From: Roseiflexus sp.
Lineage (GTDB): Bacteria; Chloroflexota; Chloroflexia; Chloroflexales; Roseiflexaceae
Direction of reading: 5' to 3'
Assembly: GCA_017743475.1 (NCBI GenBank)
Contig: JAGHYV010000016.1
Span: 1-63,230, forward strand
DNA length: 63,230 nucleotides
Shown piece after piece: positions 1,804-63,230 of this stretch. Position 1 is the stretch's first letter. Each line of letters starts with the position of its first letter. The position numbers were made by a program, and so were the translations under genes. Below the pieces are notes generated by a model. That model did no database searches, was not told where the DNA came from, and saw only the letters and a program-made list of their open reading frames with translations.

Positions 1804-3186
1804 TTATACCGGGTCTTCGACCTTTTCCAACAGCGATGCATGCTCATCGCGCCAGAGATGTGGGAGCCTGCCTGCCTCCTGCCATACCAGCAAGCGCCAT
1901 TCAGGCGGCGCTCCCTTCACCGGGTATGTTATTTCAAGATAAGGGAAGCGCTGCTGCTGACGCCGCGACGCAGCAACATCGACAATCACATCGATCCAGG
2001 TGCCGGTGTTGATATACGTCTGTCGCTCATTCAACGGTACGATCTGTGCCAGGTGCGTATGCCCGCAGATAAAGAGGCTGACTGATCGACGGCGTGGATC
2101 GTGCGCGACACGTGCCATGCCGCGGATCGAGGCGTTCCGAAATGCGCGAATGGACTGACACATCTGCTGTTCGGCAGCGCGCTGAAATGCTGCTTCGGAA
2201 AAGACGCCGGATTGCCGGCGAACACCTGCAGCACGTGCCAGAAGTGTCGCCGCCAGCGTCATCTGATGGTATGCCGGTTTCCACGATAGACGCGGTGAAA
2301 CGCGCCCGCTGTCGCCATGATCGACAACATATGTGGTGTTGCGGATCAGAACGTTAATCAGCAACACCAATCCGCGTGCAACCAGGCGACGTGTAGCGCG
2401 ATTGCGTAATGTCGGTAGAGAGAGAGCATACCAGAAAATTGCTGACAGCGGCTTGATATTGTCAACCAAGGTTGCAATATCAACCGGTTCATCCTCCAGC
2501 AGGTTGATCGCCTCACGGATCAGGCGTGTGCCAAACACAACTTCGAACGGCTCACAAATGCCGTCGAAGTGGACAAATCGATTCCATCGGTCAAATTGGT
2601 TGCCATGCACCAGAAAGATACCGTCGCCCTCGTAGCGCACGCCAAACCGCAGGCGCGGATCATTGGGCTCCAGCCCAAGTGCCTGACGCAGCACCTGTTT
2701 GGCGCTGGCGTAGTGTAACTCGAAATCGTGGTTGCCGATAAGCACGGTCACTTGATTGTCGCGCCGTGCAAGAAAAGTGCGCAATGCAGCAACCGGCGCC
2801 GCATGCGCCTGCAGGATTGTTTCAAGGCGACGCGCTGCTGCGCGTGACGACCATTCAAGATCGGGGACATCTGGCAGACAAACCTGCAAGAATTCGAAGG
2901 TGTCACCTGCCAGGATCAACTCGGTCGGTTCCGGATCGGTAGCGTAATGATGCAGCAAGGCTGCGAGTTCGGCATCGGCAGTGAAATCATCAAGGCGGTC
3001 GCCCGCGCCAAGGTGCAGATCGCTCAGCACTAGCCGACGCATCCCGACCTGAATGTCGTTTACTTCGATTGGTGGCGTCGTTTCTGTGGTCGGGTGCAGA
3101 CGTATCGGATGCAGGCGCCGCTGTAGAACTGGTAAAAGAATCACGCTGGCAAGCGCCAGCGGCAGCAGGCGAAGGGTTTGCACCAT
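1804..3186 (-). CDS. Membrane-anchored metallophosphoesterase
   Basis: This 460-residue protein has an N-terminal hydrophobic anchor (about residues 5-21) followed by a calcineurin-like phosphoesterase domain. All metal-ligand blocks are visible: SDLHLG (D56, H58), AGDTFEF (D95), GNHD (151-154), VHGNQFD and the C-terminal GHTH. The long middle segment and the metal set resemble the UDP-2,3-diacylglucosamine hydrolase-like branch of the superfamily, but the substrate cannot be read from sequence. It starts eight bases after the trpF stop, so the two are probably cotranscribed. The anchor places the catalytic domain at the membrane. Confidence 0.85.
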   Translation of the reverse strand: MVQTLRLLPLALASVILLPVLQRRLHPIRLHPTTETTPPIEVNDIQVGMRRLVLSDLHLGAGDRLDDFTADAELAALLHHYATDPEPTELILAGDTFEFLQVCLPDVPDLEWSSRAAARRLETILQAHAAPVAALRTFLARRDNQVTVLIGNHDFELHYASAKQVLRQALGLEPNDPRLRFGVRYEGDGIFLVHGNQFDRWNRFVHFDGICEPFEVVFGTRLIREAINLLEDEPVDIATLVDNIKPLSAIFWYALSLPTLRNRATRRLVARGLVLLINVLIRNTTYVVDHGDSGRVSPRLSWKPAYHQMTLAATLLARAAGVRRQSGVFSEAAFQRAAEQQMCQSIRAFRNASIRGMARVAHDPRRRSVSLFICGHTHLAQIVPLNERQTYINTGTWIDVIVDVAASRRQQQRFPYLEITYPVKGAPPEWRLLVWQEAGRLPHLWRDEHASLLEKVEDPV

Positions 3187-3194
3187 AGTGTTTA

Positions 3195-3857
3195 CTAGAC
3201 AGCGGCGCGCGCGGCTGCAACGAATGCGCGTATCTTCTGGTGGTCCTTCACGCCATTGCTTTCGACACCACTGCTAACATCGACACCCCAAGGACGGACG
3301 CGCTGAATGGCTGCAGCAACATTCTCAGGCGTCAGACCACCAGCCAGTAACAGCGGTCGCTGCCGCGCCAGGTCAGCAGCGCGATCCCAATCGGCAACCA
3401 CGCCAGCGCCGCCGTAACTGCCAGGCACGTGCGCATCGACCAGCAAGCGCACATGCGCCCACTCCTCGTTCAACCAGTCGCGCTCGTGCGCAGAGTTGTC
3501 GAAGCGAATTGCCTTAATAACCAGAAATGGCGCGAGATCTGTGGCGTATGCAACCGGCTCATCACCGCTCAGCTGAATGCCATCAAGACTACACAACGCT
3601 GCGATCTCACGAATGCGCGTCACATCTTCGTTGACGAACACGCCGATCAGGGAAACCAGACGGCGACGATCGTCAGCGGCGGCGCGCACTGCTTCTGCGA
3701 TCACGGCAGCATCAGCAGGATCGATCCGGCGACGCGACGGCGCAAAGACCAATCCGATCATATCAGCGCCAGCATCGACCGCCGTCAATGCATGGTCGCA
3801 TGTGCGTACACCACAAATTTTGACGTTGATCATCGCATACCCGAAGTACGAAATCAT
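3195..3857 (-). CDS. trpF: Phosphoribosylanthranilate isomerase
   Basis: TrpF performs the Amadori rearrangement of phosphoribosylanthranilate in tryptophan synthesis. The product shows the family hallmarks on a TIM barrel: the catalytic cysteine in KICGVRT, GADMIGLVFAPSRRRI, a barrel strand ending in LLVDAHVPGSYGGAG, LLAGGLTPENV and GVDVSSGVESNGVKD. The first ATG overlaps the stop codon of the NYN gene as ATGA, which favours translational coupling. A second ATG at 3833 (MINVKICG) gives the usual family length and could be the true start. No other trp gene is in the window. Confidence 0.95.
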   Translation of the reverse strand: MISYFGYAMINVKICGVRTCDHALTAVDAGADMIGLVFAPSRRRIDPADAAVIAEAVRAAADDRRRLVSLIGVFVNEDVTRIREIAALCSLDGIQLSGDEPVAYATDLAPFLVIKAIRFDNSAHERDWLNEEWAHVRLLVDAHVPGSYGGAGVVADWDRAADLARQRPLLLAGGLTPENVAAAIQRVRPWGVDVSSGVESNGVKDHQKIRAFVAAARAAV

Positions 3858-51955: not shown

Positions 51956-52868
51956 ACCTTGATTGCTAGTTGACGACCACCGACACCTCTGGCACGATCG
52001 CGGTTGCCCAACCAACATCGTCGCCAGGAGGAGCCGACGGTCGCTCGCCACATAATAGCCGCTTTCATCGTGATTGACACGCTGATGGAACGTCTGGGGC
52101 ATCGCAGTGATGTGCGAGCGCACGTCCCCGACTCTGAGATTCTGACGATTGCGGTCGTCGCCGCCACGTATGTTGGCCGTCATCACGAACGGGCGGCGCC
52201 TCACAGGCACGGGTGCGGTTATCTGTCGGGGCGGATCAGCGTCTCGCGCTTCAATCGTCGCCTCCATCAGCTCGCCGGTGGGATGGTCTGGATTCCCGCG
52301 AACGTCAGGGAAGCGTCGCCACGGGCGACGTGGTTATCATCGATAGCCTCCCCGCGCTGGCGTTTGTTCGCCGCCGGGCGCGCGCCCGGCGCTGTCGGAA
52401 GGCGCCCGGTCGCAGACCCGACGGGTGGTGCGTCGCCAAACAGGAGACGTTCTTTGGATGGCGCGTGCATCTCGTCTGCCGACCGGATGGCGTGCCCGTG
52501 CGCGTTCAGATGCTGCCCGCAGGGGTGCACGACCTGACCACCTCCCCCGCGCGTGGGGGGATTGGGGGGGTGCGTCTGGCCTGCCTGCCAGGGCGCGGCT
52601 GTCGGGCGATAAAGCCGACAACAGCGCCGCTGATGCGGCGCGCATCCTGGCGGAGACGGGGGCGCTGTTCGTCGTGCGACCAGGGGCGACCGTGCGTCCG
52701 CACTGCTGGTGTATGGACGCCATCGAATTGCGATTGAGACAGTCAACAGTCAACTGGAAAAGATGGATATTGAGCGGCTCCACGCCCGCACCAATGCCGG
52801 ATTTGAACTGAAGGTGCACGCAACGCTTGTGGCACTCATCTGTACGAACACGAACTAGCAATCAAGGT
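51956..52868. mobile_element. Insertion sequence with perfect 16-bp ends, inactive (IS982-like)
   Basis: The element of 913 bp is bounded by ACCTTGATTGCTAGTT (51956-51971) and its perfect inverted copy (52853-52868). The direct repeat ATAGT lies outside both ends (51951-51955 and 52869-52873), a 5-bp target duplication. Ends that start with ACC and the transposase style point to the IS982 family; the IS5 group is the main alternative. The transposase is a pseudogene, so the element can only move if another copy supplies the enzyme. Confidence 0.9.
52004..52858 (+). pseudogene. Transposase, broken in several frames
   Basis: A DDE transposase can be followed across three frames: FIVIDTLMERLGHRSDVRAH and LTIAVVAATY in the first, GDVVIIDSLPA (first acidic residue), FGWRVHLVCRPDGVPVRVQ in the second, and GDKADNSAADAA then VNSQLEKMDIERLHARTNAG (third acidic residue) towards the end. 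The stop lies in the right inverted repeat. Frame breaks occur at about 52280, 52560 and 52740. A short GC-rich palindromic insertion at about 52540-52580 (CCCCC..GGGGGG) interrupts the region between the first two acidic residues. Confidence 0.85.
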
Positions 52869-52910
52869 ATAGTGTTGGCAACAGAGCGCCGGAAAGCAAT
52901 CACAACAGCG

Positions 52911-53999
52911 ATGCCATCTGCAGAACCCAAATACTCCAGCGACTGGGGCGTTGCGTCGGTCAGGCACGATGAGCATATCGTGCAGACCTGCATTCCGCTG
53001 CTGCTGCACCCCGATGAACAGGTGCAGCGGCAGGCGACGCTCCTCCTGTTGACCCTATATGGCACCCATGCATTTACACTGCTGCGGCGGCGGTTGAGCG
53101 ACGAAAAGCCGTATGTGCGCCATGAAGCCGAACAGGCGTTACGTGTGCTGGGACGGCAGAGCGGGCATCCGGTCGATTTCCGACCCTTTCGCGGCATGCA
53201 CATTGAATGTCTCGGCACGCTGCGCGTGTATATTGGCAACCAGGAAATCCTCTCCCACGAGTGGGCGCAGTCCAACGTCAGTCGCGCCGGGCGGCGCAAA
53301 GTGCAGGCAGTGCTAGCGTATCTCGTGCACCGCGGGCGCAGCGGCGCCTCGGCAGACGAGATTCGGGCTGCAGTCTGGGGAGATGCTGGCGCAACTGGCG
53401 CACTGGGGCGCACGCTGACTGCGCTACGCCAGACCATTGAGCACTTTGGCGGAACCAGCATGGCAGAGAGCCTCCTGATCTCCAGCAATCAACGCTACAT
53501 CCTGACACCGGATGCCTATACCACTGATGTGCGCTCATTCGAGCATACCATCCGCGTTGCCGAGCAGACCGAACACGACCGCGACCTGACGGCAGCCGCG
53601 CCGGTCTACCACCATGCCTGCGAACTGTATGGCGGACCCTATCTGGCGGACGTCGATATTCTTACCGACGAGATCGAAGAACGCCGGACTGAACTGCTCA
53701 ATGCATATTTGACTGCACTGGAACGACTAGCGGAATATGCTTATCAACAGGGAGACGACGAGCAGTGCCTGGCACTCTGTCGTCGCGGCATTCGCTTTGA
53801 TCCCACCGATGAGCGCCTCACACTCTGGATGCTACGCTGCTATGCGCGCCAGCGCAACGAGGGCGAGATTGCGCGCGTGTTCCGGCGTTATCTGCGCTCC
53901 TTTGCCAGTCCGCCCGATCAGGGAGACGCAGTGGTGCGCTGGATGCGAATGCGATCAGGCACAGGCAACGAAACCGGAACAGTAAACATCGCAACATAA
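52911..53999 (+). CDS. BTAD-domain (SARP-like) regulator with N-terminal HEAT-like part
   Basis: The 362-residue protein begins with a HEAT-like helical segment (about residues 20-90: LLLHPDEQVQRQATLLLL, DEKPYVRHEAEQALRVLG), then a winged-helix region from ECLGTLRVYIGNQEIL with SADEIRAAVWGD, then a bacterial transcriptional activation domain (about 200-340, with YGGPYLADVD and TPR-like helices). SARP-type proteins activate neighbouring genes; a target is unknown. The IS ends 43 bases before the ATG, so the original promoter may be displaced. A GTG at 52872 in frame, at the very end of the IS, is an alternative start. Confidence 0.8.
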   Translation: MPSAEPKYSSDWGVASVRHDEHIVQTCIPLLLHPDEQVQRQATLLLLTLYGTHAFTLLRRRLSDEKPYVRHEAEQALRVLGRQSGHPVDFRPFRGMHIECLGTLRVYIGNQEILSHEWAQSNVSRAGRRKVQAVLAYLVHRGRSGASADEIRAAVWGDAGATGALGRTLTALRQTIEHFGGTSMAESLLISSNQRYILTPDAYTTDVRSFEHTIRVAEQTEHDRDLTAAAPVYHHACELYGGPYLADVDILTDEIEERRTELLNAYLTALERLAEYAYQQGDDEQCLALCRRGIRFDPTDERLTLWMLRCYARQRNEGEIARVFRRYLRSFASPPDQGDAVVRWMRMRSGTGNETGTVNIAT

Positions 54000-54858: not shown

Positions 54859-55554
54859 ATGGCCATCGAATTCGATGTATCGTGGGCACCTTCCGAGCAC
54901 AAGACAGTCTCTCGCGAACCTGATAAGACCATTCGTGAGGTCGTCCAGAGTCTGGTTGTGCAACTGAACCTGCCAGAGTACGATCCGCAGGGACGGCGGA
55001 TCGTCTACGGGTTATACCGCGAGCACGACGGCGAACGGGAACGTCTCCAGGAGACGCGCACGCTGCAAAGCGCGCGCATCCAGGCGCAAACGGTCTACAT
55101 TGCGAATGTAGCTGCACCCTGGTGGCAGTCGAACGCTGCACCGCCTGCGCCAAAACCAAATCCCCCCCCTCCGACAAAGCCGCTGCCGCGACGACTCTCG
55201 TCGCCTGCATCCTGTCGGCTCAAACTGGCGCCTGATTGCACCGTTGTCGTTCAGGGCGATTATCTTGAACTCGACCGCGCCTACCTGTCGAGCAAACTGC
55301 CCCAGGCGGTCGTCCTGGCGGAAAAAGCGCGCATCTTCAGCGGGTTCGACTCGCGTCTGATGCACGTCAGCCGCAAGAACCACTGCGCCATCATTCGCCA
55401 GGGTGATCACTGGCTGTTGCGCGCATATAAACCCACCTACGTCAACGGCAAATTACTCAACAATGGTCAGACGGCGACAATTCAGCCGCCAGGAGCAGAG
55501 GTTGTTCTTGGAAACGGCGGATGGCCCATCACCATTGAACTGTTTGAGGCATAG
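54859..55554 (+). CDS. Ubiquitin-like (YukD/EsaB-type) and FHA-domain protein
   Basis: The 231-residue cytoplasmic protein has two parts. Residues 1-80 resemble the YukD/EsaB ubiquitin fold (EFDVSWAPSEHKTVSREPD, VQSLVVQLNLPEYDPQ, YGLYREHDGER), and after a Pro-rich linker (about 90-110) comes an FHA-like domain (about 150-230) with ILSRxHC-like MHVSRKNHCAIIRQG, WLLRAYKPTYVNGKLL and PGAEVVLGNG. YukD/EsaB proteins are standard small components of Firmicutes type VII systems. FHA binds phosphothreonine peptides. The ATG at 54859 follows GAGGA at nine bases. This is the first gene of the locus. Confidence 0.8.
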   Translation: MAIEFDVSWAPSEHKTVSREPDKTIREVVQSLVVQLNLPEYDPQGRRIVYGLYREHDGERERLQETRTLQSARIQAQTVYIANVAAPWWQSNAAPPAPKPNPPPPTKPLPRRLSSPASCRLKLAPDCTVVVQGDYLELDRAYLSSKLPQAVVLAEKARIFSGFDSRLMHVSRKNHCAIIRQGDHWLLRAYKPTYVNGKLLNNGQTATIQPPGAEVVLGNGGWPITIELFEA

Positions 55555-55634
55555 CACCTTCCCGGCGCCTGTGCGCAATGGTCGTCATACCCACAATCAC
55601 GCGAAGAACCATGTGAAAGGAGGATCAACGACGT

Positions 55635-55913
55635 ATGCCGCCAATCAGTCTAGACCCGCAGCAGGCTCGTGCGACCGCATCGGTGTTCGATGGAGGCAAA
55701 GGTTCCATCGAAGGCGAGTTGAGTCGCATGATGAGTTCGGTCAACGAAGTGATGTCCACCTGGGCTGGTCAGAGCCGACAGCAGTTTGAGTCGCGCTGGG
55801 AAGAGTGGAGTCAGCGACTGCGCACCATGATGGACGAGTTGCAGAATCTGGCGAACGGACTGCGCCGCGAGGCGGAGGAATTTGAGTCTGTTGATCGGTC
55901 ATTCAATGCATAA
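55635..55913 (+). CDS. WXG100-family protein (ESAT-6-like)
   Basis: The 92-residue protein shows the WXG100 layout: two helices joined by the turn WAG (residues 43-45, in STWAGQS), with a conserved hydrophobic heptad pattern and a C-terminal helix ending in EEFESVDRSF. The usual YxxxD/E export signal is replaced by FESVD. Such proteins are dimeric substrates and partners of type VII secretion. AGGAGG lies 11 bases before the ATG. It is paired with the next gene, which is its paralog. Confidence 0.9.
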   Translation: MPPISLDPQQARATASVFDGGKGSIEGELSRMMSSVNEVMSTWAGQSRQQFESRWEEWSQRLRTMMDELQNLANGLRREAEEFESVDRSFNA

Positions 55914-55951
55914 GGACGCCCTGAACAGGAACAGCGAATAAGGAGGATGCC

Positions 55952-56233
55952 ATGCCCATGATCAGTCTTGACACCGATGCAGCACGCTCGGCTTCCGCAA
56001 CGTTAGCTGCAAGCAAAAGTTCTATCGAAGGCGAACTGGGCCGCATGATGAGTTCGGCAAATGAGGTCATGTCGACCTGGTCTGGCACGAGTCGGCAGCA
56101 GTTCGAGTTGCAGTGGGAGCAGTGGTGCCAGAAACTGCGAACGATGATGGAAGAATTGCAGAGCCTCTCGAACGGGTTGCGCCGCGAGGCAGAGGAGTTC
56201 GAGGCGGTTGATCGATCATTCCTGGCTGCCTGA
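55952..56233 (+). CDS. WXG100-family protein, paralog of the preceding gene
   Basis: The 93-residue protein is closely related to the gene before it, sharing ISLD, GSIEGEL-like (SSIEGELGRMMSS), NEVMSTW and the C-terminal LRREAEEFE. Its turn is WSG (residues 43-45), and the tail has FEAVDRSF. The two probably form a heterodimer as in ESAT-6/CFP-10 (inference). AAGGAGGATGCC precedes the ATG, the best ribosome binding site of the locus. The 38-base gap shows they are cotranscribed. Confidence 0.9.
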   Translation: MPMISLDTDAARSASATLAASKSSIEGELGRMMSSANEVMSTWSGTSRQQFELQWEQWCQKLRTMMEELQSLSNGLRREAEEFEAVDRSFLAA

Positions 56234-56245
56234 AGTGTGAATGTC

Positions 56246-56275
56246 AGACCCCGGAGGACGCTGCCTCTGGGGTCT
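56246..56275 (+). terminator. Hairpin between the WXG100 genes and the secretion ATPase gene
   Basis: AGACCCC (56246-56252) pairs with GGGGTCT (56269-56275), with an inner GAGG/CCTC stem, beginning 12 bases after the stop. It is not followed by a T run, so it may act as a partial terminator or protect the upstream mRNA. Confidence 0.55.
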
Positions 56276-56289
56276 CTTCCCCAACGACA

Positions 56290-59200
56290 ATGACAGTGAC
56301 TGATACCAATCCGACCAAAGCGCCAGCAATCGATGCGCCGGAGTCGTTCAACCGACCGCCGCGTATCCTGCGCAAGTTGCCAACCGATGAGATCGAGATT
56401 CCGGCACCGCCTGGCGCTCCAACACTGTCGTTGCCAGCGCGCCTTGGGTTCATCCTGCTTCCGGCGATAACCGGCATCTTCTACCTGATCGCCCTGATTG
56501 CACGTGGCGGTCAGGGAGGGAGCATCTGGCTGTCGTTGCCGATCGTGCTCATTTCATTCGCCAGCGTCGGGATCGGGATCTGGACCTATATCTCGCAACG
56601 TCGCGCCCAGGAGCAGGCTCGTCAGGAGTACGAGAATGCCTACGCCGAAACGCTTGAACGGGTTCGCTCCCATCTCCGTTTCCTTGATGCAGAACAGCGC
56701 AACGTGCGTGAGGCGAATGACCCTGAACCGACCACGCTAATGAAGATTGTTGAGGGTGATGGCGACCTGCCTGAACCGCGTCTCTGGGAACGACGCTTAA
56801 ACGACGAGGACTTTCTTCGCCTGCGCATTGGGCGCGGCGACCTGCCCACCAGCGTCGCCATCAAGCCGCCGCGTGCCAATCAGTTCCAGTATACGCCGGA
56901 ACTGCGGCGGGCGCTTGACCTGGCGCGCGAGTTCGCCATTGTGCGCGATGTTCCGATAACGCTCGCGCTCCGCCAGTGCGGTTCGATCGGCATTGCCGGC
57001 AATGACGCTGCTGTCGTCCAGTTTGTCTATGCGCTTATATGGCAGATCGTCGTTCATCATTCGCCGGATGAGGTGCGCCTAGCGGCGTTCTGGTCGGCAC
57101 ATTTCGATACAACATGGTCATGGTTGCGGTGGCTTCCGCATACGCGCGCTTTTGACGAAGAATCGTACCGTTTACTTGCACGCTATGACGGCGATCCCGA
57201 TCACTTCACCCAGGTTGTTGAAAGTCTCCTGCGCGAACTGCGTCAGCGGATCGAGCATGGCGCCGCCAATCGTCCGCATGTTGTTATCGTGCTCGACAGT
57301 TATCCGACATTCGGCGCTCAGCACGACGTCTTTCTCGATCTGATGAGACGCGGGCGCTCGCTGGGCTTCAGCGTGCTGTTTCTTGTTTCCGAAGCGCGGC
57401 AGACGCCGGGCGAGTGCGGCGGCTACATTGAACTAACGCCGCGCACGCTGCTGGCCCTGGCGGGCGCCGAAGGAGGATACACCCCATTTTCTCCCGACAG
57501 TGTCGCGCGCGCTGAGAGTGAACGCCTGGCGCGCTCCCTGGCGCGCATCGCAGATGTCTCCTTCGACCAGCAACGTGAACTGCCGCGCAATGTGCGTTTC
57601 TCGACCATTCTGGACCTAGGAGAAGTTAAGACCTACGATCCAGAGCAGTTCTGGAAAGATCCCTCCGATAGCTGGCATCCGGCGCCTATCGGTATGACGG
57701 GACCCGACGCTCACCATGATCGCTTTGTGATCAATCTCAACGAAGGTTTTCACGGCGTCCATGGCATCGTCGCCGGAACCACCGGTTCGGGCAAGAGCGA
57801 ATTTCTGCTTACCTTCCTGATGTCGCTGGCAGTGCTGCACAGCCCGGATCGCCTGAACCTCATGCTGATCGACTTCAAAGGCGGCGCAACGTTCAAAGAC
57901 CTGGAACGTTTGCCGCACACGGTCGGTATGGTGACCGATCTGGCAGGGTACGAGGCGGAACGGGCGCTGATTGCGATCAACAGCGAACTCGACCGGCGCA
58001 AACAGCGATTGCAGCGCGCCAATGTCGCCAATATTCGCGAATATCGCCGCAGTATGGCACGCAATCCTTCCCTTGCGCCATTGCCAAACCTGATGATCGT
58101 GATCGATGAATTCGATGAAATGGTGCGCGACTACCCGGAGTTCGTACCCGAACTGATCCGGGTCGCCAAACAGGGGCGCAGCCTTGGCGTGCATCTGCTC
58201 TTTGCCACTCAGCAACCATCACAGGTCAAAGAAGGGTTGCTCCGCAACCTGACCTACTGGATAGCCCTCCGGGTTACCTCGACCGAGGACAGCAAGACGA
58301 TGGTCACCATCCCCGATGCGGCATATCTGACGACCGAAACGCCGGGACGCGGCTACTTTCGGGTAAACAAACAGATCGTCGCCTTTCAATCGGCGCGTGT
58401 GACCGTGCCCTACCAGCCGTTTGAACGGAGCGACTCATTCGGCGAGGTCGATGTGACCGGACGGCGAAAGGTGATCAGCGCCCACGAACTGGGCATCGAG
58501 CGTTTTGTGGATGATGTGCTTCGCCTGTGTGAACAGTATCGCGCTGAACCACGCGCTCCGGAGATCATCACGCCACAGGTGGCATACCGGTACGCTTCGG
58601 CGGTTGCGCGCCGCGAACTGCCTGCGCCGGTCAACCCCGGCGAGCCGCAGGCGATCATCCTTCAGACGTTGAAACGCTACTTTGAGCAGACCGGCGAAGA
58701 CGCAACCGAAGCTGGCAGGCGGATCATCCACGATATGGTTGCGCAACTCGAAGGCAAGCGCGATGTCGAGACCGAGCTGGCGCTGATTGTGGAAGCCATG
58801 GCGCGGGCGCGCGGACCGCAGTATGCCTCTGCAAAGTATCGGGTGTGGATGCCGCCGTTGCCTGATGCCATCCCGCTGGTCGATCTGCTCGATAGAATGC
58901 CGCACGCTCCAGACGCCTGGATGCAGGCGCCGATAGGTTTGCTCGACTACCCGACGCGCGCCGAGCAACTCCCGCTGGTCCTTGACCTGGCGGGCAAACA
59001 CGGTAATCTGCTGGTTGTCGGCGGGTCGCGGTCGGGGAAAACCGTGCTGGTGCGCACCCTCATGCTGGCGCTCGCTATGGCGCACTCGCCCGCAGACTTG
59101 TGGATGTACACGATTGATGCCGGTGGTCGCGGGTGCGGCATGGCGCTGCCGCCTGTTGCAGATGTCGACGCGAGTGACAGGGTGCTGCCGCATCTGGCGG

Positions 59201-60900
59201 ACATGCTGACACCGCAGGACAGTGTGCGCATCGAGCGGTTGCTGGTCGAACTCGAATTAGCCATCGAAGAGCGCCGCAGCCTACTGCGCACCCACGGCGT
59301 CGATACCCTCGGCGAGTACCGGCGCCTGCATCAGCGCAACCCATCGTTACCGCCGCCACCGCCGGGCATCCTGGTTGTGATTGACAACCTGGCTGATCTG
59401 GTCGGCGCACAACCGGAAACAACCATAGAAGCGCTCATAGCGCTGATCCGCGAAGCGCGTCCATTTGGTATCGTCTTCGTGGTAACGGCTGGACTGGCAA
59501 AGGACGTAAGCCGCTGGCAGGGGTTGTTCGAGACGCGCATTGTGTTGCGGGTCAATGATGAAAACGACTCGGATACGCTGCTCGGCAAAAAGGCTGCATC
59601 CCGCATCCGCGCCGATCAACCCGGACGCGCGTTCCTGCGCACCGGCGAAGGACCGGTGGAACTGCACATTGCGCTGCCGATCCTGCGCGATCTGCGACGC
59701 CGTGAAGGGCGCAGCGCCGACGATGCGCTGCTGTCCGGCGATATGCAGAGCGAACTTGAATACTCGCTGCGGATTGCTGCACGCCGCAATCGGTTCACGC
59801 CCGAACACGCTCGCCCGCGTCCGCTGCGCCTGCTGCCGCCGCGGATCGACCTGCACGACCTGCTGGGCGAAGTTCCGGCACCCGGCATCCCCTTTGCGCG
59901 CGATAGCCTGACGCTGCGTCCGGTGACTCTCGATTTTGACGGCGGTATGAGCCATCTGCTGATCGCCGGCGGTCCGGATAGCGGCAAATCAGAGACGTTG
60001 CGCACCATCCTTGCCGCGCTGATGCTGCGTTCCACGCCGGACGAGACGCAGTTCGTGCTGGTCGATTATCGCCGCCGCACGTTCCAGGACATCCTGGACA
60101 CGCCGTTCGTGCCTGCCTGGTCGATCCAGGTTCCCCACGATCCCGTCCCAATGCCGTCGTCGTTTGCAACTGTCAAATATGACCAGCGCGACATCAACCT
60201 TGCCGTCACCGAAGGCGAACTAGCAGGGCTGTGCATGAAGCTGCGCGAGCGGTTGAATGAGCGGGTGCACCTGGGAGTATCCAGACCACGATTGATTCTG
60301 GCAGTCAACGACCTTGACCTGATGATCGGCAGAGAACAGGAGTATCTGGCGCAACTGGCGTCGCTGGCGATGCGTGGCAGCGATATTGGCTTCCACGTCA
60401 TTCTCACGGCAACTGACTTTTCATCGTGGCAGAGCAATCAACTCATCAAAGCCATCCGCACGGAACGCTGCGGTCTCTTCCTAGGCAAACCGGCTGAACC
60501 CGGTAGTGACACGCCAAACATCGCAGGTGTCGGCGTCCGGTGGTCGAAAACACTGGCGAAAGCGCAATTTCCGCCAGGACGGGGGCTGGCGCTGCTGCGC
60601 GGTCAGCAGATGCTGGTACAGGTCGCCTATGCCGGTTCCGCGATGCTCGACGAGATCCGGCAGCGTTACCGGACAGCAGCGCAGATCGACGGGCAGAACG
60701 GCGCTCTCGACACCAACATCGGGCAGGTCGCCCCAGAGCGCAGCGCCGATGCGGAGCAGAACGGTGCCGACATCGGGCAGGTCGCCCCAGAGCGCAGCGC
60801 CGATGCGGAGCAGAACGGCTCTGACCGCGACACAGCACCTGTTTCCGTCAATGTATTGGCAAACCCGGTCCATGAGACAACCGGAGGTCGCAATGACTGA
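56290..60900 (+). CDS. FtsK/SpoIIIE-type secretion ATPase (EssC/EccC-like)
   Basis: The 1536-residue protein has two membrane helices near the N-terminus (about residues 50-105), a linking region, and three FtsK/SpoIIIE ATPase domains. Walker A motifs are GTTGSGKSE (about 497), GGSRSGKTV (about 910) and GGPDSGKSE (about 1226). The first domain has a canonical Walker B (IVIDEFDE, about 601); the other two have VIDNLAD and AVNDLDL, without the catalytic glutamate. This matches EccC/EssC, in which the first ATPase is the working one. There is no N-terminal FHA pair as in EssC. The C-terminus has an 18-residue tandem repeat. The core of a type VII-like machine. Confidence 0.93.
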   Translation: MTVTDTNPTKAPAIDAPESFNRPPRILRKLPTDEIEIPAPPGAPTLSLPARLGFILLPAITGIFYLIALIARGGQGGSIWLSLPIVLISFASVGIGIWTYISQRRAQEQARQEYENAYAETLERVRSHLRFLDAEQRNVREANDPEPTTLMKIVEGDGDLPEPRLWERRLNDEDFLRLRIGRGDLPTSVAIKPPRANQFQYTPELRRALDLAREFAIVRDVPITLALRQCGSIGIAGNDAAVVQFVYALIWQIVVHHSPDEVRLAAFWSAHFDTTWSWLRWLPHTRAFDEESYRLLARYDGDPDHFTQVVESLLRELRQRIEHGAANRPHVVIVLDSYPTFGAQHDVFLDLMRRGRSLGFSVLFLVSEARQTPGECGGYIELTPRTLLALAGAEGGYTPFSPDSVARAESERLARSLARIADVSFDQQRELPRNVRFSTILDLGEVKTYDPEQFWKDPSDSWHPAPIGMTGPDAHHDRFVINLNEGFHGVHGIVAGTTGSGKSEFLLTFLMSLAVLHSPDRLNLMLIDFKGGATFKDLERLPHTVGMVTDLAGYEAERALIAINSELDRRKQRLQRANVANIREYRRSMARNPSLAPLPNLMIVIDEFDEMVRDYPEFVPELIRVAKQGRSLGVHLLFATQQPSQVKEGLLRNLTYWIALRVTSTEDSKTMVTIPDAAYLTTETPGRGYFRVNKQIVAFQSARVTVPYQPFERSDSFGEVDVTGRRKVISAHELGIERFVDDVLRLCEQYRAEPRAPEIITPQVAYRYASAVARRELPAPVNPGEPQAIILQTLKRYFEQTGEDATEAGRRIIHDMVAQLEGKRDVETELALIVEAMARARGPQYASAKYRVWMPPLPDAIPLVDLLDRMPHAPDAWMQAPIGLLDYPTRAEQLPLVLDLAGKHGNLLVVGGSRSGKTVLVRTLMLALAMAHSPADLWMYTIDAGGRGCGMALPPVADVDASDRVLPHLADMLTPQDSVRIERLLVELELAIEERRSLLRTHGVDTLGEYRRLHQRNPSLPPPPPGILVVIDNLADLVGAQPETTIEALIALIREARPFGIVFVVTAGLAKDVSRWQGLFETRIVLRVNDENDSDTLLGKKAASRIRADQPGRAFLRTGEGPVELHIALPILRDLRRREGRSADDALLSGDMQSELEYSLRIAARRNRFTPEHARPRPLRLLPPRIDLHDLLGEVPAPGIPFARDSLTLRPVTLDFDGGMSHLLIAGGPDSGKSETLRTILAALMLRSTPDETQFVLVDYRRRTFQDILDTPFVPAWSIQVPHDPVPMPSSFATVKYDQRDINLAVTEGELAGLCMKLRERLNERVHLGVSRPRLILAVNDLDLMIGREQEYLAQLASLAMRGSDIGFHVILTATDFSSWQSNQLIKAIRTERCGLFLGKPAEPGSDTPNIAGVGVRWSKTLAKAQFPPGRGLALLRGQQMLVQVAYAGSAMLDEIRQRYRTAAQIDGQNGALDTNIGQVAPERSADAEQNGADIGQVAPERSADAEQNGSDRDTAPVSVNVLANPVHETTGGRND
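60718..60818. repeat. 54-bp tandem repeat at the 3' end of the ATPase gene
   Basis: A 47-base block beginning ATCGGGCAGGTCGCCCC occurs at 60718 and is repeated without a mismatch at 60772. It encodes IGQVAPERSADAEQNG twice. The identity at DNA level indicates recent duplication. Confidence 0.92.
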
Positions 60901-61744
60901 GTACGAACTGTGGCGCTACTTCGAGCAGTATGCTCAAATGAGCAACGCATGGTGGTATTCGGTTGCCGTATTGCCGGCGACGATTATTTCCGCATGCGCC
61001 TACTTCCTGATGTGGCTGGCGCTGCGACGAACCAGGCAGTTGCCCAAGATGTTTCTCTGGCTCTGCGTTGGCAGCATTCCGGTGATCCTGATCCTACCAT
61101 CGTTCTATGTCAGCATCAATCTGACCGACGCTCTGGCGCGTGTCGGGTTTGTCGCTCCGGCGAACGAGCAGCAGATGAGCCGCGCTGTAGCGCTCCAGAT
61201 CGGTGCGTACCTGAGTCAGATCGCCACCCTAGGCATCATCGGGGCATCGCTGGCAGTTGTCATTCTCATTGCTGCCATTCTGATCGGCGGCTATGCACCG
61301 CAGCAGATTATGCAAACCGTCCAGTCGCTGTCACAGAGTTTCTCTAAGGCAATGACGCGCGCCTTCGGACCGCCGCGGACAGCGCGGGTCGCCGCCAGCT
61401 CGAAGTACGGCATCATCAAGGTCATGCGCGCTGGTGCGCAACAGGGCGCGCAGTTCGGCGTGACCAACGGCGCAATCATCGGCAAGAGCGACGCGACAAT
61501 GGTCATTACGGACGATATCGTGTCACGCCGTCACGCGCGTTTTGAAATCCGTAACGACTCGGTCTTTTTGATCGATATGAACAGCACAAATGGAACCTAT
61601 GTCCGGCGCAACCAGCGCGACGAGGAACTCAACGGCGATCCGTTTGAATTGCGCCATGGCGACATCATTTATCTCGGCTCACCCTCAGAACCGGAATCGG
61701 TTGAGTTGCGGTATGAGCGCACCCCATCAGGAGGACAGTCATGA
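60893..61744 (+). CDS. Membrane protein with C-terminal FHA domain
   Basis: The 283-residue protein has an N-terminal membrane region with three helices (PATIISACAYFLMWLAL, SIPVILILPSFYVSI, LGIIGASLAVVILIAAILI) and an FHA domain (about residues 185-280) with GAIIGKSDATMVITDD, VSRRHARFEIRND, LIDMNSTNGTYVRR and LRHGDIIYLG. All key phosphothreonine-binding residues (Arg, Ser, His, Asn) are present. The ATG lies within the last codons of the ATPase gene, with GGAGGT just upstream; the gene's stop overlaps the next ATG. It is probably a docking protein at the membrane for a phosphorylated partner. Confidence 0.88.
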   Translation: MTEYELWRYFEQYAQMSNAWWYSVAVLPATIISACAYFLMWLALRRTRQLPKMFLWLCVGSIPVILILPSFYVSINLTDALARVGFVAPANEQQMSRAVALQIGAYLSQIATLGIIGASLAVVILIAAILIGGYAPQQIMQTVQSLSQSFSKAMTRAFGPPRTARVAASSKYGIIKVMRAGAQQGAQFGVTNGAIIGKSDATMVITDDIVSRRHARFEIRNDSVFLIDMNSTNGTYVRRNQRDEELNGDPFELRHGDIIYLGSPSEPESVELRYERTPSGGQS

Positions 61745-62967
61745 AGCGGATCGGTATCATCACAACCCTTCTCGTCGCCCTGCTCCTGGTTGCTCCGGCA
61801 CACGCGCAAAGTCCCGCCTGCCAGGGGTTAGAGGTTCATGCTGCGCAACTCACGTTTCCAACCGTTGCCATTCAGTTCAGTGTCTGTGACGCCCAAGGGA
61901 ACCAGATCACCACGCTGGACAGGAGCGCCGTCCGCATCATCGAAGATGGAACTCCGATCACCAGTTTCACCCTGGAATCGCAGACAGCGCACGATGGACA
62001 ACCGGTTCAAACTGTGCCCCTGGTGAACGGCGGTACATTCACACTGGTGACGACCGGCGCAAGTATCGGGATTGTGTTCGACGCTTCGCAACTGCTCAAC
62101 GGCACCGGTGCCGATGCTGGCGATCATCTCGGCGCGGCACGCGCCGCTATCGAAGCGTTTCTCCTTGAGCCGGGCGACCCGCCGCCGCCACGCACCCGAT
62201 CGCCGGGCAATATGGAGCGTGTCGCGCTCTTCATCCCGGCGGATCAACCAGCGCAGGCGTTGCAGCCGGACGGGTTGCCGGGGTTCACTCAGGATCGGTA
62301 TGCGGTGATCAATACCCTGCGCCAGAACCTGCCAGTCCGTCAGGGGAAGACCAGCCTGAATGCCGCCATTCAGGCCGCCATCGACGCCACTGCCCGCGAT
62401 GCGCAGGAAAACGGCGGCAAAGCAGTGGTGCTGGTGGTGAGCGACGGTGGCGACGCGCTGACCGGCGACTCGTTCAATAGTTTGATCAGCCAGGCGTCGC
62501 AGAAACAGGTACAGATTGTCGCGTTCGGCGTCGGAACGGATAAAGCGCTGAAGAATAACGGCTTTCGGCTGAAACAACTCGCCGAAGCGACCGGCGGCAT
62601 CTATCTTGAACGACCGGACGCGAACGGCGCTGGCAGCGCCTTCCAGCGCGTGGTGCAATCACAACCGGCTGCGATCTATACCGTGCGCTACGATACCCGG
62701 ATCATCGACGATGGCAAATCGCACACGGCGGTTCTGGAGGTGGTTACTCCTTCAGGAACGCGGAGCTATCCGTTTCCGCTCACCTATGCCGGTGTGACAA
62801 CCGGCGTTACGCTCGCGCCGTTAGGAGACGTGCTGCTGCGGCAGTATTTCATGTTCGCCATTCCAATTGCCGTCATGCTCTCACTGCTGTTGACCCTGAT
62901 GAGCGGTGTTATCTTCTGGGTAAGCAGCGCTTCGTCCGGCATAACACGCGGAAAGACACGACACTGA
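61741..62967 (+). CDS. Secreted, membrane-anchored VWA-domain protein
   Basis: The 408-residue protein has a signal peptide (RIGIITTLLVALLLVAPAHA), a VWA domain (about residues 100-300, GIVFDASQL in place of the DxSxS metal motif, VVLVVSDGGDALTG, and VQIVAFGVGTD) and a C-terminal membrane helix (FAIPIAVMLSLLLTLMSGV). The MIDAS-like site has DASQL and so lacks the last serine. The domain faces outside. Its ATG overlaps the FHA gene stop as ATGA. It resembles VWA proteins that accompany secretion or chaperone-like machines, and its function is unknown. Confidence 0.85.
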   Translation: MKRIGIITTLLVALLLVAPAHAQSPACQGLEVHAAQLTFPTVAIQFSVCDAQGNQITTLDRSAVRIIEDGTPITSFTLESQTAHDGQPVQTVPLVNGGTFTLVTTGASIGIVFDASQLLNGTGADAGDHLGAARAAIEAFLLEPGDPPPPRTRSPGNMERVALFIPADQPAQALQPDGLPGFTQDRYAVINTLRQNLPVRQGKTSLNAAIQAAIDATARDAQENGGKAVVLVVSDGGDALTGDSFNSLISQASQKQVQIVAFGVGTDKALKNNGFRLKQLAEATGGIYLERPDANGAGSAFQRVVQSQPAAIYTVRYDTRIIDDGKSHTAVLEVVTPSGTRSYPFPLTYAGVTTGVTLAPLGDVLLRQYFMFAIPIAVMLSLLLTLMSGVIFWVSSASSGITRGKTRH

Positions 62968-62983
62968 GCGCCAGAGGTGGATC

Positions 62984-63230
62984 ATGCCTGAAATCCCAAT
63001 TCCGTCACGGCTGGGCAATTTTGAGATACTCGACCTGATTGGCGTCGGACTGAGCGGCGAGGTCTACAAGGCGCGCTACCACGATGGCACGATGGTGGCG
63101 CTCAAGGTGCTTGCCGCGAAACATCATAAAAATCCGACGGTGTTTGGATATTTCACTAATGAGCAACTGTTGCTCCGCGAAGTGGCGCAGCACCGGCGCC
63201 ACCCGCATATCGTCGAATATCTCACCAGTA
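62984..63230 (+). CDS. Ser/Thr protein kinase, N-terminal part (runs off the window)
   Basis: The 82 visible codons begin MPEIPIPSRLGNFEILDLIG and hold the glycine-rich loop GVGLSGEVYKARY and the ATP-binding lysine in MVALKVLAAK, followed by a helix with an acidic residue (EQLLLREVAQ) and HPHIVEYLTS. This is the start of an eukaryotic-like (Hanks-type) kinase. AGAGGTGG precedes the ATG, which lies 17 bases after the VWA gene. It probably phosphorylates a partner read by the FHA proteins of the locus (inference). The catalytic loop lies beyond the window. Confidence 0.88.
   Translation, partial: MPEIPIPSRLGNFEILDLIGVGLSGEVYKARYHDGTMVALKVLAAKHHKNPTVFGYFTNEQLLLREVAQHRRHPHIVEYLTS

What the first reader, a model, noticed from the sequence alone, without database searches (positions are those of the whole stretch)
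54859..63230. Type VII secretion-like locus in a Chloroflexota genome with its own phospho-signalling parts
Seven genes in one direction, most with overlaps or short gaps: ubiquitin-like/FHA, two WXG100 proteins, an EssC/EccC-like ATPase, a membrane FHA protein, a secreted VWA protein and a Ser/Thr kinase. The WXG100 turns and three Walker A motifs are visible in the sequence. The combination differs from the Firmicutes (EssA/EssB/EsaA) and Actinobacteria (EccB/D/E, mycosin) sets, none of whose other parts can be seen here. Whether this is a secretion system of its own type is inference; the right edge of the window hides more genes.
Basis: partly seen in the sequence, partly recalled or inferred. 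Interest (0 to 1): 0.8.

Follow-up and report, generated by a model that had tools for sequence, protein, structure and literature searches.

The report
Chloroflexales type VII secretion locus, phospho-regulated
These seven genes, plus at least four more on the neighbouring contig, encode a bacterial protein-export machine of the type VII family in a relative of Roseiflexus; its part list resembles a subtype described in 2024 from Bacillota, but its motor forms a separate Chloroflexales lineage with its own kinase, phosphatase and phospho-reader proteins, in a phylum where I found no published description of such a machine.

Summary
Seven co-directional genes at 54859-63230 encode Ubl-FHA, two WXG100 proteins, an EccC/EssC ATPase, a membrane FHA protein, a membrane-anchored VWA protein and the start of a Ser/Thr kinase. 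The window is a whole contig. Its end overlaps another contig of the same genome by 55 identical bases; there the operon continues: rest of kinase (TM, SH3), PP2C phosphatase (TM, PASTA), Ubl-TM protein, long WXG100 protein, EspG-like chaperone. The order is the same, up to the long WXG100 genes, in the complete genome of the same genus. The core families recur in three further Chloroflexota genomes, and in a fourth without a detected WXG100 gene. The ATPase belongs to the T7SS EccC/EssC family, not FtsK. No EccB, EccE, EssB, EsaA or full EccD was found. WXG100 domains fused to CHAP or cutinase-like domains are likely substrates. The part list matches T7SSc (Bacillota, 2024), but the ATPase is a separate Chloroflexales clade (grouping with T7SSc rejected, p-AU 5e-40), and several parts are built differently, so I do not file it as T7SSc. 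New variant of a known kind; secretion itself is inferred, not shown.

The parts
54859..55554 (+). Ubl-FHA adaptor (N-terminal ubiquitin/YukD-like domain, C-terminal degenerate FHA), no TM
   Evidence: FHA E=0.011; YukD and FHA hits in orthologues L062, L048, L050, L039; ubiquitin fold of the N-terminal ~86 residues, Foldseek prob 1.00; 92% aa identical in G163
55635..55913 (+). WXG100 protein 1 (W-A-G turn, C-terminal FxxxD)
   Evidence: PF06013 2.5e-19, TIGR03930 over cut-off
55952..56233 (+). WXG100 protein 2 (W-S-G turn, C-terminal FxxxD), near-paralogue of the first (64 of 93 positions identical)
   Evidence: PF06013 1.2e-15, TIGR03930 over cut-off
56290..60900 (+). EccC/EssC-type T7SS ATPase, two N-terminal TM helices, three P-loop ATPase domains, no FHA
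   Evidence: EccCa 520.8 bits (cut-off 509), EccCb 370.1 (346.6), EssC 625.3 (778), FtsK 72; Walker motifs and TM; trees; best PDB matches TcEccC 4nh0, YukB 9qks, EccC5 7np7
60893..61744 (+). FHA membrane protein: three TM helices, then an FHA domain with the SRRH and NG core residues kept
   Evidence: PF00498 3.3e-16; TM; orthologues in L036, L039, L051, L055, L076
61741..62967 (+). VWA protein with signal-peptide-like N-terminus and C-terminal TM helix
   Evidence: PF00092 4.8e-6; TM; orthologues in L036, L039, L051, L055, L076
62984..63230 (+). first 82 residues of a 463-aa Ser/Thr kinase (kinase-TM-SH3_3); continues on contig C183 through a 55-base identical overlap

Best explanation
A type VII secretion operon of a Chloroflexales-specific lineage, functionally most like T7SSc. 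Proposed working: the EccC/EssC protein forms a membrane-anchored hexameric motor powered by its first ATPase domain, with domains 2 and 3 serving substrate recognition. WXG100 dimers, and proteins with an N-terminal WXG100 domain fused to envelope-active enzymes (CHAP, cutinase-like), are the cargo. An EspG-fold chaperone keeps a particular long WXG100 substrate soluble and is inherited with it. The TM kinase (outside SH3 domain) and TM PP2C phosphatase (outside PASTA domain) read the cell wall and set threonine phosphorylation inside, which the FHA membrane protein reads to gate or assemble the motor; the Ubl domains dock on the first ATPase domain as the EccD Ubl does in ESX-5. Shown: gene content, families, folds of the Ubl part and (on a relative) of the EspG-like part, constraint, recurrence across genomes, ATPase phylogeny. 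Inferred: secretion, the phospho-switch, wall sensing, the docking.
For: Family scores of the ATPase, its closest solved relatives and trees; WXG100 scores; continuation on C183 and same order in G163 up to the long WXG100 genes; the same core families in L039, L055 and L076, and without a detected WXG100 gene in L051; EspG fold in relative L079, VIA Z 10.3 against 2.4 for the first unrelated row, PF14011 8.5e-5 nearly full length in the L055 orthologue; WXG100-CHAP in G163 with the same N-terminus as its neighbour but another C-terminus, WXG100-cutinase-like in L055; the EspG-like gene sits beside the same long WXG100 type in G000 and G131, while G163 has no detectable EspG-like gene and no match to that C-terminal type in the stretch searched; constraint; neighbour counts.
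Against: No experiment known to me shows secretion by this system. No channel protein of the EccB/EccD/EsaA kind was found, so how cargo crosses the envelope is unknown. The C-terminal WXG100 pattern is FxxxD, not the classical YxxxD/E, and the last hydrophobic position of the extended pattern is missing. FHA binding of phosphothreonine is untested, and the FHA in the Ubl-FHA protein is degenerate. No WXG100 gene was detected next to the G067 copy of the cluster.
Confidence: 0.72

Rival explanations
1. It is simply T7SSc (Garrett 2024) found in another phylum, by descent or transfer, and deserves no separate place.
For: Same functional set; Paenibacillus loci fetched here show Ubl-like, ATPase, EspG-like, WXG100, kinase, VWA-like and PP2C genes in one run, and the Chloroflexota EspG-like profile hits the gene after the ATPase there (9e-5 to 6e-4).
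Against: The ATPases form separate, well supported clades and holding them together is rejected (p-AU 5e-40); Ubl fused to FHA, VWA with signal peptide and TM, PP2C with TM and PASTA, two WXG100 genes and an extra FHA-TM protein differ from the published T7SSc layout (PMC11217815).
Confidence: 0.15
2. An envelope-maintenance machine: kinase, phosphatase, VWA and FHA parts control cell-wall remodelling, with the T7SS motor exporting wall hydrolases for growth or gliding of the filaments rather than for competition with other bacteria. (Compatible with the best explanation on mechanism, different on purpose.)
For: SH3_3 and PASTA outside domains, WXG100-CHAP cargo, a CAP protein beside the locus.
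Against: Variable C-termini on a near-identical N-terminus look like polymorphic effectors; another Chloroflexota locus has a WXG100 protein with an HNH-like end (weak). Immunity genes were not looked for.
Confidence: 0.35
3. DNA-transfer or chromosome-segregation FtsK-like locus, not protein secretion.
For: FtsK/SpoIIIE P-loop family membership.
Against: EccCa and EccCb cut-offs met, FtsK 72 bits, plasmid TraB 19 bits; the cellular FtsK sits on a very long branch outside; two WXG100 genes directly upstream.
Confidence: 0.02

Closest known systems
T7SSc (TscA-TscG) of Paenibacillus, Brevibacillus, B. anthracis (Garrett, Higginson and Palmer 2024, PMC11217815)
   Same: WXG100, ubiquitin-like part, ATPase without FHA, TM kinase with intact active site, vWA protein, PPM phosphatase, EspG-fold chaperone, no EccB/EccE/EssB/EsaA
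   Different: ATPase in another clade; Ubl fused to FHA or TM; VWA secreted and anchored; PP2C membrane-bound with PASTA; separate FHA membrane protein; two WXG100 genes; phylum Chloroflexota
T7SSa (ESX) of Actinomycetota
   Same: EccC-type ATPase without FHA, two WXG100 genes, EspG-fold chaperone, a Ubl domain in a membrane protein
   Different: no EccB, EccE or full EccD; mycosin-like subtilases all below the family cut-off; kinase, phosphatase, FHA and VWA proteins instead
T7SSb (Ess/Yuk) of Bacillota
   Same: WXG100, Ubl part, kinase-fold TM protein (EssB is a pseudokinase)
   Different: ATPase has no FHA; no EssB or EsaA; the kinase keeps its catalytic residues
T7SSe (Bacillota; kinase, PPM, TseJ FHA protein, two WXG100)
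   Same: kinase, phosphatase, separate FHA protein, two WXG100 proteins
   Different: TseC carries N-terminal FHA domains, here absent; TseI, TseH and TseK were not looked for here

Membership tests
T7SS (whole class) | EccC/EssC-family ATPase | tested here: met
   EccCa and EccCb NCBIfam cut-offs met; trees
T7SS (whole class) | WXG100 protein(s) at the locus | tested here: met
   two, over cut-off
T7SS (whole class) | ATPase-dependent export of WXG100 cargo | not testable with these tools
   needs experiment
T7SSc | ATPase without N-terminal FHA | tested here: met
   no FHA in the Pfam scan of the ATPase
T7SSc | ATPase belongs to the T7SSc clade | tested here: not met
   separate Chloroflexales clade; joint clade rejected p-AU 4.9e-40, with Paenibacillus rows standing for T7SSc (published: two clades)
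T7SSc | TM Ser/Thr kinase with intact active site | tested here: met
   Pkinase 1.9e-33 in the G163 orthologue; VALK, HRD, DFS motifs and TM 324-342 in the joined protein
T7SSc | vWA protein without signal peptide or TM | tested here: not met
   VWA present but with signal-like N-terminus and C-terminal TM
T7SSc | cytoplasmic PPM phosphatase | tested here: not met
   PP2C domain present (1.7e-14) but followed by TM and PASTA
T7SSc | EspG-fold chaperone TscG | tested here: met
   EspG fold in relative L079; the C183 gene is a homologue of that family; located on C183, outside the window
T7SSc | small discrete Ubl protein | tested here: not met
   Ubl is fused to FHA in one protein and to TM in another
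T7SSc | single WXG100 gene in the core cluster | tested here: not met
   two adjacent, 64 of 93 positions identical
T7SSa | EccB | tested here: not met
   0 of 20 Chloroflexota genomes incl. G000 and G163; the same model rings in three actinobacteria
T7SSa | EccD with multi-TM part | tested here: not met
   none in G000, G163, G131, G067, G253; the model rings over cut-off in another Chloroflexota, G226
T7SSa | EccE | tested here: not met
   none in G000, G163, G131, G067, G253; the model rings over cut-off in G226 only, no actinobacterial control was run
T7SSa | mycosin | tested here: inconclusive
   subtilases exist elsewhere in the genome, best 247.5 bits against cut-off 278.75; none on C141 or C183 in that list
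T7SSb | EssB/YukC | tested here: not met
   0 of 20, B. subtilis control rings
T7SSb | EsaA | tested here: not met
   0 of 20, one control over cut-off
T7SSb | EssA | not tested

The most novel reading that the evidence does not exclude
A distinct T7SS subtype of Chloroflexales in which export is switched by an operon-encoded phosphorylation circuit: a wall-sensing kinase and a wall-sensing phosphatase with opposite action, read by an FHA membrane protein and a Ubl-FHA adaptor that dock on the motor, with WXG100-enzyme fusions as cargo.
Probability: 0.45. Interest if true: 0.75.

Novelty: new variant of a known kind. Interest (0 to 1): 0.6.

Why it matters
T7SS types have been catalogued in Actinomycetota and Bacillota; for Chloroflexota the papers found here only note WXG100 genes or predicted ESX systems (PMC3935865, PMC4010439, PMC10765036). 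A whole operon in a third phylum shows which parts recur across lineages (ATPase, WXG100, Ubl, EspG-like chaperone) and which are swapped, and shows that the kinase-phosphatase-vWA set accompanies more than one ATPase lineage. That makes the question whether phosphorylation gates T7SS assembly directly testable, in an operon where sensor, writer, eraser and reader lie side by side.

Tried and rejected
FtsK/conjugation reading: rejected on family scores and tree. T7SSa or T7SSb membership: rejected for lack of EccB, EccE and full EccD, and of EssB and EsaA. T7SSc membership: composition fits, but the ATPase clade test and four architectures do not. Laying the whole genome in the Python box was not possible. 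No WXG100 gene was detected by the family model beside the G067 copy of the cluster (L051). The CAP protein and the upstream BTAD regulator are not claimed as parts. One scan of Paenibacillus neighbours failed on wrong coordinates and was replaced by reading the ORFs.
Full report
What is there. The window is the whole contig C141 of a 4.97-Mb genome. Its genus-mate G163 is a single contig of 5,801,598 bases. G049:C65 and G267:C265 of the same order have the lengths of contigs titled 'uncultured Chloroflexus sp.' and 'Chloroflexota bacterium', so the genome belongs to Chloroflexales; from genome size I take it for a Roseiflexus species (inference). The seven genes of the finding are all present, in one direction, with gaps of 80, 38 and 56 bases, then overlaps, then a gap of 16 bases.

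The right edge. The last 55 bases of the window are identical to one end of contig C183, and the joined frame gives a 463-residue kinase. Reading on: PP2C phosphatase with TM and PASTA (546 aa), a Ubl protein with one TM (435 aa; its Ubl part shown only by similarity to the Ubl-FHA family), a WXG100 protein of 302 aa, an EspG-like protein of 272 aa, then a CAP protein after a wider gap. G163 shows the same order without a break from the Ubl-FHA gene to the first long WXG100 gene, which supports the join. In G163 two long WXG100 genes follow, and no EspG-like gene is found in that genome.

What the parts are. The ATPase passes NCBIfam's EccCa and EccCb cut-offs, falls below the Firmicutes EssC one and is far from FtsK; its best solved relatives are TcEccC, YukB and EccC5. 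It has two N-terminal TM helices, three Walker A motifs, and an intact Walker B acid pair only in domain 1; in all rows of that alignment, T7SSa, b and c included, domain 1 keeps the DE pair. The two WXG100 proteins are close paralogues (64 of 93 positions) with W-x-G turns and FxxxD near the C-terminus. The Ubl part of the first gene is shown by fold and by YukD hits of orthologues. The EspG-like family is shown by fold on a relative, by a nearly full-length PF14011 hit of the L055 orthologue below the curated cut-off, and by its profile hitting the gene next to the ATPase in Paenibacillus loci. Candidate cargo: G163 has two neighbouring genes with near-identical WXG100 N-termini and different C-termini, one of them CHAP; G253 has WXG100 followed by a cutinase-like hydrolase (weak Pfam hit, 0.005); other Chloroflexota have WXG100 with HNH-like or LysM ends.

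Conservation. The cluster with Ubl-FHA, WXG100, ATPase, FHA-TM, VWA, kinase and PP2C recurs in G131 (L039), G253 (L055) and AL-N1 (L076, rearranged); L051 of G067 has it without a detected WXG100 gene. Against 20 random 20-kb stretches, WXG100, Ubl, kinase, FHA-TM and EspG-like genes are enriched near Chloroflexota EssC genes; PP2C weakly and VWA not significantly across the whole set, as they mark the window's own branch and some others. The models used were seeded from these loci and iterated on EssC loci, so this comparison favours them; the independent support is the Pfam and fold results above. Substitution between window and G163 is constrained, dN/dS 0.02-0.30.

Place in the family. In a 67-row tree the window ATPase lies in a clade of Chloroflexales and one unplaced Chloroflexota MAG (19 rows, SH-aLRT 99), apart from T7SSa, T7SSb, T7SSc and other groups. 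In a 27-row tree forcing that group and T7SSc together costs 141 log-likelihood units, p-AU 5e-40. Only Paenibacillus rows stood for T7SSc, and Garrett et al. report two T7SSc clades, so this is a test against what was sampled. EccB, EccE, EssB, EsaA and full EccD were not found in the window genome or its relatives with the cluster; mycosin-like subtilases are present but below cut-off.

Reading. A T7SS whose part list equals T7SSc in function but differs in ATPase lineage and in how the parts are built. The phospho-circuit and wall sensing are inference from domain content and topology; topology is from a hydropathy scan only. Published accounts found here mention Chloroflexota T7SS only as WXG100 genes or predicted ESX systems or as WXG-linked toxin tables, and Garrett et al. 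do not mention the phylum; my paper search covers open-licence papers only.

Noticed in passing
L073:7357-16233 (G107), L160:4371-13160 (G012), L161:3126-11816 (G239); long frames of the same kind in G031, G040, G058, G075, G099, G274, G035: Giant T7SS ATPases of about 2,900-2,960 residues; in L073 and L160 seven FtsK-type ATPase domains in the order D1-D2, D1-D2, D1-D2, D3. In L073 flanked by WXG100 genes, a long WXG100 gene and an EspG-like gene; the three D1 Walker A motifs look intact.
   Followed up: partly
L037:1815-2849 and 2904-3743 (G163): Two adjacent genes with near-identical WXG100 N-termini and unrelated C-termini (one CHAP), an arrangement like polymorphic effectors.
   Followed up: partly
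G131:C1:811500-812291 and G000:C183:45332-46147: The EspG-like gene lies beside the same long WXG100 type in G000 and G131 and was not found in G163, whose locus lacks that type: suggests a dedicated chaperone rather than a core part.
   Followed up: partly
L039:579-1627 (G131): A WXG100 gene and a 122-aa ORF read as the two halves of one G163-type protein: a frameshift or sequencing error.
   Followed up: no
G226:C26:22608-23903: Another Chloroflexota family holds an EccD over cut-off beside an EssC whose ATPase groups with actinobacterial EccC, but no EccB was found: a T7SSa-like branch without EccB.
   Followed up: partly
window 52827-53999: BTAD/HEAT transcriptional-activator-like gene upstream of the locus, also upstream in G163; possible regulator.
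   Followed up: no
L090, L095, L125, L149, L150, L155: Streptomyces and relatives carry a separate FtsK/EccC-like lineage, most with WXG100-like neighbours, that is not the classical EccC branch.
   Followed up: no
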